Shown in pieces: positions 27,553 to 34,428 of a stretch of DNA of 39,281 bases; position 1 is the stretch's first letter; the number at the start of each line of letters is the position of its first letter. The position numbers were made by a program, and so were the translations under genes. The stretch is from positions 1-39,281 of the forward strand of contig JACVRR010000011.1 in assembly GCA_014534345.1 (NCBI GenBank), given 5' to 3'. Below the pieces are notes generated by a model. That model did not search any database. It saw nothing but the letters and a program-made list of their open reading frames with translations, and had not been told where the DNA came from. The stretch is from Thermoleophilia bacterium. GTDB lineage: Bacteria; Actinomycetota; Thermoleophilia; Gaiellales; Gaiellaceae.

Positions 27553-28215
27553 TCAGCCGGCCGGGCGTCGGTCGCCGTCGAAGAGTCCGCTCTCGTGCGC
27601 GAGGACGACCGCCTGAACGCGGTCGCGTAGCTGGAGCTTCTGGAGGATGTGCGTGATGTGCGTCTTGACCGTCGTGTCGCTGATGTAGAGCTGGCGGGCG
27701 ATCTCGGCGTTCGAGAGCCCGCGGGCGATCAGGCGGAACACCTCGAGCTCTCGCTCGGTCAGCTCGTCGAGGGCTCGCGGCGGCGCACGCCGCGGAATGC
27801 GCGTGAACCGCTCGATCACGCGTTTCGTCACGGCGGGCGAGAGCAGCGCGTCGCCGCCGGCGACGGTGCGGACGGCGGCGAGGAGCTGCTCCGGGGGGTC
27901 GTCCTTCAGGACGAACCCGCTCGCGCCGGCGCGGAGCGCCTCGTAGACGTACTCGTCCAGGTCGAACGTCGTCAGGATCAGGATCCGGGCGGTGCGGTCC
28001 GCGGCGAGGATCCGTCGGGTGGCCTCGAGCCCGTCGAGGTCCGGCATGCGAATGTCCATCAGCACGACGGTCGGCCCGAAGCGGGCGGCCTTTTCGACCG
28101 CCGCGAGCCCGTTGCTCGCCTCCGCGACGACCTCGATGTCGGGCTCGCCGGAGAGGAGCATGCGGAAGCCGGCGCGCACCATCGACTGGTCGTCGGCCAC
28201 CAGGACGCGGATCAT
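27553..28215 (-). CDS. NarL/FixJ-family response regulator
   Basis: VLVADDQSMVRAGFRMLL, VVLMDIRMPDLDGLEA, LuxR HTH LTERELEVFRLIARGLSNAEIARQLYISDTTVKTHI. Confidence 0.93.
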   Translation of the reverse strand: MIRVLVADDQSMVRAGFRMLLSGEPDIEVVAEASNGLAAVEKAARFGPTVVLMDIRMPDLDGLEATRRILAADRTARILILTTFDLDEYVYEALRAGASGFVLKDDPPEQLLAAVRTVAGGDALLSPAVTKRVIERFTRIPRRAPPRALDELTERELEVFRLIARGLSNAEIARQLYISDTTVKTHITHILQKLQLRDRVQAVVLAHESGLFDGDRRPAG

Positions 28216-29411
28216 CCCGCGCGCCGGCCGTCGAGGGGAAGGCGCGCGTTGAGCACGAAGCCGCCGCCGGGCGCCGCGCCTGCGGACATCTCGCCGCCGT
28301 AGATCTTCACGCGCTCGCGGATCCCGACCAGGCCGTGGCCGAGGCCGTCGCTCGCCGCGGGGCCGCTGCCGTCGTCGGCGACCTCGACCTCGATCCCCTC
28401 GGGGCGGTAGCGGACGACCACGTCGGCGCTGGTGGCGCGTGCGTGCTTGAGCGCGTTGGTCAGGCCCTCCTGCGCGATCCGGTACGCGGACAGGTCGAGC
28501 GCGCGCGGGAGCGGGAACGGCTCGCCCTCGACGTGCAGCCGCGCGGGTAACCCCGCGCGCTCGACTTCGTCGAGCAGCGAGTCGAGCCCGTCGAGCCCGG
28601 GCTGCGGCGCGAGCTCCGCCTCGTCCCCGTCGGGGCGGATCGCCCCGAGGAGGCGCCGCATCTCCGCAAGGGCGGTGCGACCCGCCTGCTCGACGTGCCC
28701 GAGCGCCTCCCGGTCCTCCTCGAGTGCCTGCGGCAGCTTGTGCCTGACGGCCCCCACCTGGAGCACCATCACGCTGACCGCGTGCGCGACGACGTCGTGG
28801 AGCTCGCGCGCGATCCGCGCGCGCTCCTCGGCGACGGCGATGCGCGCGGCCGCCTCCCGCTCGCGCTCGGCCTGGGCGGCACGGACCTCGGCCGCTTCCG
28901 CTTGCTGGGATCGCTCTCGGAGCGCGTAGCCCGCGAGCCAGCTGATCCCGAAGACCAGGGGAATGAAGAGCTGCTCGGCCGCGGAGTGCGCGGGCAGGTT
29001 GTAGATGATGATCACGGCGCCGCCGACCACGATCGCCCCGCCCAGCCACGCCCTCACCGCCTCGCGCAGGTTGCCGAGCAGGAACGCGGTCGCCATCCCG
29101 AGGATGTACACGCCGCCCGCGAACGGGATCAGCCGTCCGTCCACGAACGACGCACCGGCCGCGACGAGCCAGTAGGCCGCCGGCGCGCCAAACGGGAATC
29201 GCCTCCGCGCGAAGAGCGGGAGCACCATGACCGCAATCGCCGGCAGGCAGAACCAGAGCGTCCTTTGCGGCGCGTCCGGTGAGTCGCGGCTTACCGCGAC
29301 GACGACGATCGCCTGGATCGCGAGCACCGCGATCAGCGCGTCCAGCCTGTAGCTGCGAGCGAGGTGCTGGAGTCGCCTCACGAGCTGAAGGTACTCCAGG
29401 GTCGCGCGCAT
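28212..29411 (-). CDS. NarL-type sensor histidine kinase (HPK7)
   Basis: H-box IARELHDVVAHAVSVMVLQ; YRIAQEGLTNALKHA; DDGSGPAASDGLGHGLVGIRERV. ATGA overlap with the response regulator. Confidence 0.92.
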   Translation of the reverse strand: MRATLEYLQLVRRLQHLARSYRLDALIAVLAIQAIVVVAVSRDSPDAPQRTLWFCLPAIAVMVLPLFARRRFPFGAPAAYWLVAAGASFVDGRLIPFAGGVYILGMATAFLLGNLREAVRAWLGGAIVVGGAVIIIYNLPAHSAAEQLFIPLVFGISWLAGYALRERSQQAEAAEVRAAQAEREREAAARIAVAEERARIARELHDVVAHAVSVMVLQVGAVRHKLPQALEEDREALGHVEQAGRTALAEMRRLLGAIRPDGDEAELAPQPGLDGLDSLLDEVERAGLPARLHVEGEPFPLPRALDLSAYRIAQEGLTNALKHARATSADVVVRYRPEGIEVEVADDGSGPAASDGLGHGLVGIRERVKIYGGEMSAGAAPGGGFVLNARLPLDGRRAG

Positions 29412-29415
29412 CGCC

Positions 29416-29515
29416 TCCTACGTGAGTAGGAGCGGCGATCGTCGGCGGGTCCCGGCCCGAACCCGACCCCGCGACGACGCCGCTGCGCGGCCGTCTTCGT
29501 ACGGTCGCGGCATGG
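29416..29515 (+). promoter_or_regulatory. candidate regulated promoter module A: palindrome TCCTAC-GTGA-GTAGGA plus TACGGT-N6-ATG
   Basis: Palindrome 29416-29431; -10-like TACGGT 29500-29505; ATG 29512. About 70/100 ungapped identity (manual count) with 32269-32368. Confidence 0.6.
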
Positions 29516-29667
29516 ACGTCGAGCCGAGAGCAGGAGCGAAGGCACTCGAACGGCCGCCGGTCCGCGAGGTGGCCGCACGCGAGGAAGACGGCATCCAGCG
29601 TGCACGCCTCGTATCACCCCTACACCGACGCGGCCGCCTAGCGGCGCGCGCGGCGACGATCGCCTGA
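29512..29667 (+). CDS. putative 51-aa leader ORF upstream of the MMPL transporter
   Basis: ATG 6 nt after TACGGT; TGA 29665-29667 followed by AAAGGAGG RBS and ATG 29681. Confidence 0.3.
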   Translation: MDVEPRAGAKALERPPVREVAAREEDGIQRARLVSPLHRRGRLAARAATIA

Positions 29668-29680
29668 AAGGAGGCGCAAG

Positions 29681-31918
29681 ATGTTCGGGAGCAAGCAGGG
29701 AAATGGGCGGGCGGAGCGCAACGTCGCGGCCCGCATGGGCCGCTGGAGCGCCGCCCACTGGAAGACGGCCACGTTCGGCTGGCTGGCGTTCGTCGCCGTC
29801 GCCTTCGCCCTCGGCGGTCTCGTCGGGACGAAGAACGTCGATCCGAACACGTCCGGCCCGGGCGAGTCGGGCCGCATGGACAGAATTCTCGACGCCGGCT
29901 TCAGGCAGCCGGCCGGCGAGAGCGTCCTGATCCAGAGCCGTTCGGCTCGTGTCGGCGACCCCGCCTTCACCGCTGCGATCGAGGACGTCGTCGCGCGCGT
30001 CTCCAAGTTGGCGGACGTCCAGAACGTCCGCTCGCCGCTCGCGCCCGCGAACGCCGGCCAGATCGCGAAGGCGGAGGACGCGGCACTCGTTCAGTTCGAC
30101 ATCCGCGGCGACAAGGAGACGGCCGGTGACAGGATCGACCCGGTCCTCGACGCCGTGGCTGCAGCCCAGCGCGCCCATCCCGGGTTCTTCATCGGTCAGT
30201 TCGGCGACGCGAGCGCCGCGAAGGCGGTCGACACCGTGTTCGCGGACGACCTCGCGAGCGCGGGTCTGTTCTCGATCCCGATCACGCTCGTCATCCTCGT
30301 GGTCGCGTTCGGCGCACTCGTGGCGGCAGGGATCCCGCTGCTCCTCGCGCTCACGGCCGTCTTCGCGACCTTCGGGCTGACGGCGCTGCCGAGTCACGTG
30401 TTCCCGCTCGCGGAGGAGGCGTCCGCGGTCGTGCTGCTGATCGGGCTCGCGGTCGGCGTCGACTACTCGATGTTCTACTTGAAGCGCGAGCGCCAGGAGC
30501 GGGCCGCCGGGCGGAGCGAGCGGGCCGCGCTCGAGGCGGCCGCGGCGACCTCCGGCCGGTCGGTGCTCGTCTCCGGCTTGACGGTGATGGTGGCGATGGC
30601 CGGCCTGTTCCTGACGGGCGACGCCACCTTCGCGTCGTTTGCGTACGCGACGATGATCGTCGTCGCCGTCGCGGTGCTCGGCTCGCTGACCGTCCTGCCC
30701 GCGCTGCTCTCGAAGCTCGGCGACCGAGTCGACCGGCTGCGCGTGCCGCTCGTCGGTCGCCTCCGCCGCGACGACGGCGACGGCCGGATCTGGGGCGCGA
30801 TCGTCGACCGCGTCCTGCGCCGGCCCCTGATCTCCGCGGTGGTCGCGGCGGGTCTGATGCTGGGGCTCGCCGCGCCGGCGCTGCAACTGCGGATCGCCAC
30901 GCCGGGTCCGGATGCGGCGTTTCCGAAGTCGCTCGAGGTCATCAAGACGTACGACCGCATGCAGGAAGCGTTTCCGGGCACCGCGCTGCCTGCCAACGTG
31001 GTCGTGAAGGCGGCCGACGTCAACGCGCCGGCGATGCGAGACGCGATCCGGCGGCTCGAACGGCGGGCGCACGAGAGCGGGCAGATGGGCGAATCGATCA
31101 CCGTTGCAGTCAACGCGGATGCGACGGTCGCCAACATCACCGTTCCGATCGCCGGCACCGGGACCGACCCCGCGTCGAACACGGCGCTTGCCGAACTCCG
31201 CGGCGAGATCGTGCCCGAGACCGTAGGCGCAGTCCCCGGCGCGGAGGCCGGCGTCACGGGACTGACCGCCGCATGGAAGGACCAGGGCGACCAGGTGAAG
31301 GCGTGGCTGCCGCTCGTCGTCGGGTTCGTCCTCGTGTTCGCGTTCGCCCTCCTGCTCGTCGCGTTCCGCTCGCTCGTGATCCCGGTCAAGGCGATCGCGC
31401 TCAACCTGCTCTCGGTCGCGGCCGCCTACGGCGTGCTGGTGCTCGTCTTCCAGCACGGCGTCGGCAAGGGACTGCTCGGCTTCAGCGAGACCGCCGGGAT
31501 CTCCCCCGTCGTACCGGTGCTGCTGTTCGTGATCCTGTTCGGGCTCTCGATGGACTACCACGTCTTCATCCTCAGCCGAATCCGCGAGACGTTCGACTGC
31601 GGCGCGACCATGGACGACGCGGTTGCGCACGGGATCAGGTCGACGGCCGGTGTCGTCACGAGCGCCGCGATCGTCATGGTGGCCGTCTTCTCGGTCTTCG
31701 CAGCGCTCTCGTGGCTGTTCTTCAAGCAGTTCGGCGTCGGGCTCGCGGCGGCGATCCTGATCGACGCGACGATCGTCCGCGCGGTGCTCCTGCCGGCGAC
31801 GATGAAGCTGCTCGGGGAGTGGAACTGGTACCTGCCGGCCTGGCTCGAGTGGCTCCCGCGCTTCGAGCACGCGCCGGACGACGTGCCGGAGGCGACCCCC
31901 ACGCCGACGTCCGCGTAG
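29681..31918 (+). CDS. MMPL/RND-family transporter
   Basis: MMPL motifs LLIGLAVGVDYSMFYLKRERQER and FVILFGLSMDYHVFILSRIRETF; about 12 TM segments. AAAGGAGG RBS. Confidence 0.92.
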   Translation: MFGSKQGNGRAERNVAARMGRWSAAHWKTATFGWLAFVAVAFALGGLVGTKNVDPNTSGPGESGRMDRILDAGFRQPAGESVLIQSRSARVGDPAFTAAIEDVVARVSKLADVQNVRSPLAPANAGQIAKAEDAALVQFDIRGDKETAGDRIDPVLDAVAAAQRAHPGFFIGQFGDASAAKAVDTVFADDLASAGLFSIPITLVILVVAFGALVAAGIPLLLALTAVFATFGLTALPSHVFPLAEEASAVVLLIGLAVGVDYSMFYLKRERQERAAGRSERAALEAAAATSGRSVLVSGLTVMVAMAGLFLTGDATFASFAYATMIVVAVAVLGSLTVLPALLSKLGDRVDRLRVPLVGRLRRDDGDGRIWGAIVDRVLRRPLISAVVAAGLMLGLAAPALQLRIATPGPDAAFPKSLEVIKTYDRMQEAFPGTALPANVVVKAADVNAPAMRDAIRRLERRAHESGQMGESITVAVNADATVANITVPIAGTGTDPASNTALAELRGEIVPETVGAVPGAEAGVTGLTAAWKDQGDQVKAWLPLVVGFVLVFAFALLLVAFRSLVIPVKAIALNLLSVAAAYGVLVLVFQHGVGKGLLGFSETAGISPVVPVLLFVILFGLSMDYHVFILSRIRETFDCGATMDDAVAHGIRSTAGVVTSAAIVMVAVFSVFAALSWLFFKQFGVGLAAAILIDATIVRAVLLPATMKLLGEWNWYLPAWLEWLPRFEHAPDDVPEATPTPTSA

Positions 31919-32268: not shown

Positions 32269-32368
32269 TCCTACCTGCGTAGGAGGCCGACTCGTCGGCC
32301 CGTGCGAGCGCGAATCCGGCCCGCCGACGACGACGCGGCGCCGACGCTGTCCTAGCGTCGAGGCATGC
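32269..32368 (+). promoter_or_regulatory. candidate regulated promoter module B: palindrome TCCTAC-CTGC-GTAGGA plus TAGCGT-N6-ATG
   Basis: Palindrome 32269-32284; TAGCGT 32353-32358; ATG 32365. Same internal offsets as module A. Confidence 0.6.
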
Positions 32369-32391: not shown

Positions 32392-34428
32392 ATGGACGCC
32401 CCGAGAGCCCGAGCGCTCACCCCCGCGCGCATCGTCGCGCTCGCCGTCGTCGCCGTGCTCGTGGTCGGGCTCGGCTACCTCCGCGTCACGACCGGCACGG
32501 ACCGGCTCGCCGTACCGGACGGCGCGAAGGCCGGCCAGCTCGTCCTCGAGCCGTGCGAGTACGCGACCGAGGACGGCGCGTACGGCGCGGACTGCGGCAC
32601 CCTCGTCGTACCCGAGAACCGCGCCGACCCGCAGTCGCGCCTGGTCGCCCTGCCGGTAACGCGCATCAGGGCACGCTCGGCGCGGCCGGCCGAGCCGATC
32701 TTCCGCCTCGGGGGCGGCCCCGGCGGGACGAACATGGAGTTCGACCGGGCGAGCCGGTTCGCCCAGCGGCACGACGTCGTCCTGGTCGGCTACCGCGGCG
32801 TCGACGGCTCCTCGGTCCTCGACTGCCGCGAAGTCGAGTCGGCGCTCGCGCACTCGACCGACCTCCTCGGCGAGAGGACGCAGCGCGCCTACGCCGAGGC
32901 GCTCCGGGCGTGCGCCGACCGGCTCGCCGGCGCGGGAGTCGATCTCCGCGGCTACAGCCTCCCGCAGCGGGTCGACGACCTCGAGGCGGCCCGCGTCGCG
33001 CTCGGCTACGACCGTATCCACCTGCTCAGCGAGAGCGCCGGGACCCGCACGGCGCTGATCTACGCCTGGCGCTACCCGGACAGCGTCCACCGCTCGGTGC
33101 TGATCGGAGCGAACCCGCCGGGCGGCTTCGTCTGGGACGCGAGGACGACCGACCTGCAGGTTCGCCGCTACGCCGCGCTCTGCGAGCGGGACGAGCGCTG
33201 CAGCACGCGGACGGACGATCTCGCCGAGTCGCTGACGCGCGCGGCCGGCGACATCCCGGACCGCTGGCTCTTCCTGCCGATCAAGGAGGGGAACGTTCGC
33301 GTGGCGACGTTCTACGGTCTCGTCGAGGCGTCGTCTGAACAGCCGATCTCCGCGCCGATGACGCTCGACTCGTGGCTCTGGGCGGAGGACGGCGACGCGA
33401 GCGGATTCTGGTTCCAGTCGCTCCTGGCCGACGTCGCGTTCCCGAAGGCGTTCGTCTGGGGCGACGTCGCAGCCGCCTCCCGGGCCGACGCCGACGCCGC
33501 GAAGCGCTACTTCGCCTCCGACCGCGCCCGCGGGACGGCCCTCGGCGATCCCGGCACGCAGTTCCTCTGGGCCGGCGGCCGCACCCTCGACGCGTGGCCC
33601 GCGACGCCGGACGAGGACGACTACGGCCGCATGCGCACGTCGTCGGTCGAGACGCTCGTCATCGGCGGCGAGCTGGACTTCGCGACCCCGCCGCAGGTGG
33701 CGAAGCGGGAGGTCATGCCGCACCTCCCGAACGGTCACCGGGTCGTCCTGGCAGGGTTCGGCCACACGACCGACTTCTGGACGCAGCAGCCAGAGGCGGG
33801 CACACGCCTGATCGGCACGTTCCTCGCGAGCGGGCGGGTCGACGACTCGCGGTACGAGCGGGGGAAGGTCGATTTCGCGCCGTCGATGAGCCAGGGCGCG
33901 ATCGCGAAGATCGTCGCCGGCTCGCTCGTCGGGCTCGCGGCGCTCGCCGTCCTCTCGCTCGGCTGGATGGCCGTCCGTGTCCGCGCGCGCGGCGCCTTCG
34001 GCCGCAAGGGGAGCGTCGCGCTGCGGTCGCTGAGCCCCGTTCTGCTCGGCGTGGGCGGCTGGCTCCTCGGCGTGCTCGTCGTCATCGCGACGATGCCCGG
34101 CGTCCCGATCGACGGCGAGCTGCTCGTCGCCGTCTCGGTCGGCGCGCCGATCGGGCTCGGGCTCTACCTCGCCTGGGTCGACCGCCGCTGGTCGACGACG
34201 GCCAAGTCCACGGGTCTCGCGGCAGCCGTGGCGGGCGCGCTCCTCGGCGCGTGGCTCGGGTTCAACGCGGCCGACGACCTCGTCGCGCTGCTCACGTCGA
34301 TTGCGGGGGCGGCCGCGGGGGGCAACCTGCTCCTGCTCGTGCTCGACGCCGCCTGGGATCGCCAGGCGCGCGATCGGTTCGCCGCCCCGACGGCGCCGGA
34401 TACGTCCGCCGCGGCCTCGGCTGGGTGA
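32392..34428 (+). CDS. alpha/beta hydrolase (TAP-like) with C-terminal TM segments
   Basis: Oxyanion region LGGGPGGTN, nucleophile elbow LLSESAGTRTALIY, C-terminal IGGELDFATPPQVAKREV..VVLAGFGHTTDFW and four hydrophobic helices. In-frame leaderless ATG at 32365 also possible. Confidence 0.85.
   Translation: MDAPRARALTPARIVALAVVAVLVVGLGYLRVTTGTDRLAVPDGAKAGQLVLEPCEYATEDGAYGADCGTLVVPENRADPQSRLVALPVTRIRARSARPAEPIFRLGGGPGGTNMEFDRASRFAQRHDVVLVGYRGVDGSSVLDCREVESALAHSTDLLGERTQRAYAEALRACADRLAGAGVDLRGYSLPQRVDDLEAARVALGYDRIHLLSESAGTRTALIYAWRYPDSVHRSVLIGANPPGGFVWDARTTDLQVRRYAALCERDERCSTRTDDLAESLTRAAGDIPDRWLFLPIKEGNVRVATFYGLVEASSEQPISAPMTLDSWLWAEDGDASGFWFQSLLADVAFPKAFVWGDVAAASRADADAAKRYFASDRARGTALGDPGTQFLWAGGRTLDAWPATPDEDDYGRMRTSSVETLVIGGELDFATPPQVAKREVMPHLPNGHRVVLAGFGHTTDFWTQQPEAGTRLIGTFLASGRVDDSRYERGKVDFAPSMSQGAIAKIVAGSLVGLAALAVLSLGWMAVRVRARGAFGRKGSVALRSLSPVLLGVGGWLLGVLVVIATMPGVPIDGELLVAVSVGAPIGLGLYLAWVDRRWSTTAKSTGLAAAVAGALLGAWLGFNAADDLVALLTSIAGAAAGGNLLLLVLDAAWDRQARDRFAAPTAPDTSAAASAG

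What the first reader, a model, noticed from the sequence alone, without database searches (positions are those of the whole stretch)
29416..29515. Duplicated ~100-bp promoter module with palindrome TCCTAC-N4-GTAGGA in front of the MMPL gene and the hydrolase gene
Seen directly: TCCTACGTGAGTAGGA (29416-29431) and TCCTACCTGCGTAGGA (32269-32284). In both, CGACGACG starts at offset +56, a TANNGT -10-like hexamer at +84 and ATG at +96. Ungapped identity over 100 bp is about 70% by my count, although the downstream genes are unrelated (MMPL transporter vs alpha/beta hydrolase). The adjacent NarL-type two-component system is the obvious candidate regulator; inverted repeats centred near -88 fit an upstream activator site. 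This suggests a compact TCS-MMPL-hydrolase regulon.
Basis: partly seen in the sequence, partly recalled or inferred. Interest (0 to 1): 0.75.

Follow-up and report, generated by a model that had tools for sequence, protein, structure and literature searches.

The report
Three-site two-component regulator promoter, twice
The two matching 100-bp stretches are real switch regions, each with three evenly spaced docking sites for the neighbouring two-component regulator, which probably switches on its own sensor gene, a membrane exporter and a membrane hydrolase together; sister regulators in related bacteria use the same layout with different docking sequences.

Summary
In detail: two perfect palindromes TCCTAC-N4-GTAGGA (29416, 32269) start two 100-bp stretches that are exactly 70% identical, and they are the only two exact copies in the 2.4-Mb (69% complete) genome. 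The finding is larger than reported. Each stretch is an array of THREE 16-bp operators (TC-N12-GA) at exact 23-bp pitch, followed 22 nt later by a -10 (TANNGT). The operators are centred at -88.5, -65.5 and -42.5 from the inferred start. On the other side of the palindrome the histidine-kinase gene has the same 22-nt/-10 geometry (14/14 loci), implying a leaderless GTG start at 29381 and a symmetric bidirectional promoter. The module precedes MMPL genes in 13 genomes, the hydrolase in 3, and a CPBP/Rce1-like protease in one. MMPL homologues beside the orthologous TCS have the palindrome in 7/7 cases, those without in 1/22. Paralogous kinases carry the same grammar with other half-sites (TCGTCC, TCCGCC). 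So the TCS-MMPL-hydrolase regulon is well supported by comparative genomics. The ATG at +96 is the transcription-start region, not a conserved start codon. Binding and activation are inferred by analogy to DevR/DosR; nothing was tested at the bench.

The parts
29416..29431 (.). Operator 1 of the divergent HK/MMPL promoter (perfect palindrome TCCTACGTGAGTAGGA); centre -88.5 from MMPL start and -42.5 from HK start
29439..29454 (.). Operator 2 (TCGTCGGCGGGTCCCG), 23 bp from operator 1, centre -65.5
   Evidence: TC..GA score 3.59 of 4 at offset 23 over 17 modules, background 0.95
29462..29477 (.).
   Evidence: score 3.06 of 4 at offset 46
29500..29505 (+). -10 element TACGGT, 22 nt after operator 3; inferred transcription start at 29512
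   Evidence: hexamer conserved in relatives
29388..29393 (-). -10 element TACCTT of the kinase gene, 22 nt after operator 1 on the other side
   Evidence: same 22-nt spacing in 14/14 loci
28212..29381 (-). DesK-like (HisKA_3) sensor kinase; probable leaderless GTG start at 29381 instead of ATG 29411
27553..28215 (-). NarL-type response regulator, the proposed binder of the operators
29681..31918 (+). MMPL-family transporter (target 1)
32269..32284 (.). Operator 1 of the hydrolase promoter (TCCTACCTGCGTAGGA)
32292..32307 (.). Operator 2 of the hydrolase promoter (TCGTCGGCCCGTGCGA)
32315..32330 (.). Operator 3 of the hydrolase promoter (TCCGGCCCGCCGACGA), centre -42.5
   Evidence: the only exact triple-operator hit in the own genome
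32353..32358 (+). -10 element TAGCGT; inferred transcription start at 32365
32392..34428 (+). Alpha/beta hydrolase (Abhydrolase_1 + TAP-like C-terminal domain; hydrophobic C-terminal extension by sequence), target 2; start at the ATG after GGAGAGGAG

Best explanation
Each module is a class II promoter built on three tandem operators for the response regulator encoded at 27553-28215. Phosphorylated regulator dimers first occupy the perfect palindrome (operator 1). They then spread cooperatively at 23-bp intervals over the weaker operators 2 and 3. The dimer at -42.5 contacts RNA polymerase at a promoter that has a good -10 but no consensus -35. At the kinase/MMPL intergenic region the array is bidirectional: operator 1 is itself at -42.5 from the leaderless kinase gene, so the same array autoregulates the two-component system and switches on MMPL. 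The second array, 2.85 kb downstream, switches on the hydrolase. Shown: the array geometry, its conservation, and its linkage to the TCS and the targets. Inferred: that this regulator is the binder, cooperativity, the order of occupancy, activation rather than repression, and the exact transcription starts. An envelope-stress or toxic-lipophile signal is plausible from the VraR-like regulator and membrane targets, but is a guess.
For: Operators: over 17 modules the TC..GA signature scores 4.0/3.59/3.06 (maximum 4) at offsets 0/23/46, against a mean of 0.95 and a maximum of 2.35 at all other offsets. Geometry: a 22-nt gap to the -10 on both sides, 14/14 loci on the kinase side. Conservation and targets: 13 MMPL, 3 hydrolase and 1 protease promoter. 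Linkage to the TCS: 7/7 against 1/22 MMPL homologues, P = 5e-6. Swapped gene order with modules retained in L028. Same grammar at paralogous TCSs with other half-sites: 16/44 kinase-upstream regions (orthologues included) score 12/12 against 0/880 shuffles. A base-agnostic pattern search gave 11 hits and 0 controls in 299 genomes, 7 with a TCS homologue within 1.5 kb. The regulator residue aligned with the second Lys of the NarL helix TVKVHVK is Thr in 12/12 TCCTAC-type regulators and Ala in 15/16 others. No -35 better than random. DevR precedent: close-packed sites, the proximal one over the -35, cooperative, shared by divergent genes (PMC3029386).
Against: No binding, transcript-start or expression data exist. 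Operators 2 and 3 are weakly palindromic: mean 2.7 and 1.8 of 6 arm pairs, the latter at background. Their identity as operators rests on the 23-bp register, the conserved TC and GA ends, and the paralogues where the extra sites are clearly inverted repeats. G123 keeps the module before MMPL but has no regulator homologue at E<=1e-50. The Thr/Ala correlation is confounded by ancestry and has one exception (L137). The genome is only 69% complete, so further targets may be missing.
Confidence: 0.83

Rival explanations
1. The same regulator binds the same array but represses: a dimer over the -35 at -42.5 blocks RNA polymerase, and phosphorylation or dephosphorylation relieves it.
For: Operator 3 overlaps the position of a -35 element; autorepression of TCS operons occurs (general knowledge).
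Against: No consensus -35 on either side, as expected for activator-dependent promoters. -42.5 on both sides with two further upstream sites is activator geometry, as in DevR.
Confidence: 0.1
2. An unlinked regulator (for example a TetR, MarR or BlaI-type repressor) binds the palindrome, and the neighbouring TCS is a bystander or just another target.
For: Perfect palindromes are common operators of such repressors. G123 has the module without a detectable TCS homologue.
Against: Palindrome presence tracks the orthologous TCS (7/7 against 1/22). Paralogous TCS groups have their own half-sites in the same three-site grammar, which is hard to explain unless the cognate regulators read it.
Confidence: 0.06
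3. The similarity is simply a recent local duplication of intergenic DNA with no regulatory meaning.
For: Two similar copies lie 2.85 kb apart.
Against: Outside the palindrome the two copies are 67% identical, no more than copies of different genera (window hydrolase against G052 MMPL is 79%). The module is conserved in 14 genomes with near-exact spacing.
Confidence: 0.01

Closest known systems
DevR/DosR promoters of Mycobacterium tuberculosis (e.g. tgs1-Rv3131)
   Same: NarL-family regulator; tandem close-packed sites of unequal strength; proximal site over the -35; one array shared by divergent genes (PMC3029386).
   Different: Different site sequence; three sites at 23-bp pitch here; the kinase gene itself is one of the divergent targets and is probably leaderless; targets are MMPL, hydrolase and CPBP protease, not hypoxia genes.
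VraSR / LiaRS envelope-stress systems of Firmicutes
   Same: VraR is the closest solved relative of the regulator (5hev, E = 3e-49); HisKA_3-type kinase; autoregulated membrane-stress logic (function from general knowledge).
   Different: No LiaF-like third gene was sought; different operator; NCBIfam LiaS model far below its cut-off (82 against 450 bits).
NarL / NarP
   Same: Best NCBIfam matches of the regulator are of this family; same receiver + GerE layout.
   Different: Below the NarL cut-off (190 against 250 bits). NarL heptamers are arranged otherwise (from memory).

Membership tests
NarL/FixJ-type two-component system | Receiver domain plus GerE (LuxR-type) helix-turn-helix in the regulator | tested here: met
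   Response_reg 88 bits, GerE 76 bits, both above cut-off
NarL/FixJ-type two-component system | HisKA_3 + HATPase_c kinase encoded next to it | tested here: met
   HisKA_3 67 bits, HATPase_c 36 bits
DevR-like class II tandem-operator promoter | Several close-packed regulator sites upstream of the start | tested here: met
   Three sites at 23-bp pitch, by sequence
DevR-like class II tandem-operator promoter | Proximal site overlaps the -35 region | tested here: met
   Centre -42.5 relative to the inferred start, 22 nt before the -10; start not mapped
DevR-like class II tandem-operator promoter | Cooperative binding of the phosphorylated regulator | not testable with these tools
   needs EMSA or footprinting
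VraR/LiaR, MadR or NarL equivalogs | Passes the curated equivalog cut-off | tested here: not met
   LiaS 82 bits against 450; MadR 163 against 300; NarL 190 against 250
MMPL transporter | MMPL domain above Pfam cut-off | tested here: met
   261 bits, two stretches

The most novel reading that the evidence does not exclude
A whole family of NarL-type two-component systems in Thermoleophilia (and at least one Propionibacteriaceae-assigned MAG) uses one fixed promoter grammar: three 16-bp operators at 23-24-bp pitch, symmetric 22-nt gaps to the two -10s, and a leaderless kinase gene. Paralogues are insulated from each other by changing only the inner half-site (TCCTAC, TCGTCC, TCCGCC) together with a residue of the recognition helix. 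The regulon of each system could then be read from sequence.
Probability: 0.6. Interest if true: 0.6.

Novelty: new variant of a known kind. Interest (0 to 1): 0.5.

Why it matters
It turns a TCS of unknown function, in a class with little regulatory genetics, into a defined regulon with base-level operators and predicted transcription starts. It also gives a set of paralogues in which regulator residue and half-site vary within a constant layout. That is a natural data set for the open question of how NarL-type regulators acquire and insulate DNA specificity, and for finding the targets of uncharacterised systems from sequence alone.

Tried and rejected
Leaderless translation from the +96 ATG: rejected because the ATG is absent at the same place in most relatives. 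Simple recent duplication: rejected by the identity matrix. Other own-genome targets: the 1-mismatch palindrome at C166:3480 and the two 1-mismatch triple hits show no coherent array. Exact palindromes in G080, G086 and G098 are not near homologues of the TCS, MMPL or hydrolase genes and look like chance. L179 (G035) is a chimeric join of RR and MMPL fragments and was excluded. Sequence-model hits with E above about 1e-5 are mostly weak; the useful ones sit at paralogous kinases. Literature searches found no paper on such a system in Thermoleophilia (open-access library only). A suspected gene remnant between MMPL and the hydrolase gave no Pfam match in the frame tried and was dropped.

Full report
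The two palindromes TCCTACGTGAGTAGGA (29416-29431) and TCCTACCTGCGTAGGA (32269-32284) are exact and are the only exact copies in the held genome, a 2.43-Mb draft of 69% completeness. The 100-bp stretches they open are 70/100 identical without gaps. Random pairs in the same GC-rich window average 30 and reached at most 59. The similarity stops at the edges: 5/20 before and 9/20 after.

Exact palindromes occur in 12 other genomes of the order. Nine of these lie beside homologues of the MMPL gene, eight of them with the divergent kinase gene. Kinase relatives from named genomes (Thermoleophilia MAGs, a Solirubrobacteraceae MAG and a MAG called Chloroflexi) add more. Aligning 17 modules from 14 assemblies shows conservation well beyond the palindrome: ATCGTCG, GCGAATCCGGCC, CGACGACG and CCTAGCGTCGA.

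The reason is a repeat that is hard to see by comparing only two copies. Cutting the module every 23 bp gives three 16-bp sites that start with TC and end with GA. Over the 17 modules the four end letters match on average 4.0, 3.59 and 3.06 at offsets 0, 23 and 46. All other offsets average 0.95 and never exceed 2.35. The third site ends 22 nt before a TANNGT -10. If transcription starts 6 nt after the -10, at the A of the +96 ATG, the sites are centred at -88.5, -65.5 and -42.5.

The other side of the first palindrome is equally regular. In 14/14 loci, reading towards the kinase, 22 nt separate the palindrome from a TANNNT hexamer, and a GTG or ATG follows 6-7 nt later. The kinase is therefore probably leaderless, starting at GTG 29381, with the palindrome at -42.5. 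The intergenic region is a symmetric bidirectional promoter. Neither side has a -35 better than random positions.

The +96 ATG is not conserved in relatives. Conserved Shine-Dalgarno sequences follow downstream. So MMPL starts at 29681, and the hydrolase at 32392 rather than 32365.

Targets. The module precedes MMPL in 13 genomes and the hydrolase in three (window, G062, L028). In L028 the order is kinase<>hydrolase, MMPL instead of kinase<>MMPL, hydrolase, yet each gene has its own module. In L032 (a Propionibacteriaceae MAG), and with a degraded palindrome in L092 (G001), the divergent target is a CPBP/Rce1-like membrane protease. Hydrolase orthologues are rare, in 3 of 129 genomes of the order.

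Link to the TCS. Among MMPL homologues of the order, 7/7 with the orthologous kinase adjacent have a perfect palindrome, against 1/22 without (P = 5e-6). In G046 the MMPL-hydrolase pair (73% and 71% identical) lacks both the orthologous TCS and the palindrome. The exception, G123, has the module but no regulator homologue at E<=1e-50 and none on the fetched parts of its contig. It keeps a TACGGT at the kinase-side -10 position, so loss of the TCS or a binning gap is possible.

Family-wide grammar. A sequence model of the module also hit, weakly, the promoters of paralogous kinases, including one in the own genome (C81). There the three-site layout recurs at 23-24-bp pitch with other half-sites: TCGTCC-N4-GGACGA, TCCGCC-N4-GGCGGA and others. 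Of 44 kinase-upstream regions (orthologues and paralogues, some from near-identical loci) 16 match all twelve end letters; none of 880 shuffles does. A search for spacing and end letters only, over 299 genomes of the class, gave 11 hits against 0 for the reversed control. Seven of the 11 have TCS homologues within 1.5 kb. Several paralogue targets are ABC-transporter ATPases.

Regulator. Its best solved relatives are VraR and NarL. The helix position aligned with the second lysine of NarL TVKVHVK is Thr in 12/12 regulators of the TCCTAC group and Ala in 15/16 others. This correlation is suggestive but not corrected for ancestry; that this lysine touches bases in NarL is from memory.

Mechanism. 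The nearest described logic is DevR: close-packed sites, the proximal one over the -35, a strong and a weak site filled cooperatively, one array serving divergent genes (PMC3029386). By analogy the regulator should load at the palindrome, spread to sites 2 and 3, and activate from -42.5. Binding, cooperativity, activation and the signal are inferred.

Verdict: a well-supported regulon, not found described in the papers searched, and a tidy promoter grammar; a new variant of a known kind.

Noticed in passing
window 29381-29411 (-): The longest kinase ORF begins at ATG 29411, but the conserved promoter geometry puts the start at GTG 29381 (leaderless). The extra 10 codons would overlap the -10.
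   Followed up: yes
window 29512-29642 (+): Remnant of a small upstream gene (..REVAAREEDGIQ.. then, in another frame..HASYHPYTDAAA) between promoter and MMPL. Its homologue is intact in G052 (L069, 66 aa) and G046 (L067); no Pfam match. It appears frame-shifted or shortened here.
   Followed up: partly
G000:C81:31224-33196 (L137): A paralogous TCS in the same genome (HK 46%, RR 66%) has a similar module driving an ABC-transporter ATPase, but with another half-site.
   Followed up: partly
G123:C15 (L070, L171): Intact module before MMPL (74% identical) in a 98% complete genome without a detectable orthologous TCS; a kinase-side -10 hexamer persists.
   Followed up: partly
L092 (G001) and L032: The orthologous TCS is divergent from a CPBP/Rce1-like membrane protease instead of MMPL, with the same promoter body (palindrome degraded in L092).
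   Followed up: partly
L028 (VBDV01000186.1): A contig filed as a Chloroflexi MAG carries this TCS, hydrolase and MMPL promoters at 63-70% protein identity; possibly mis-binned or transferred.
   Followed up: no
L208 (G064:C163:4143-4233): A perfect three-operator array without a TCS homologue within 1.5 kb; a candidate remote target of a paralogous system.
   Followed up: no
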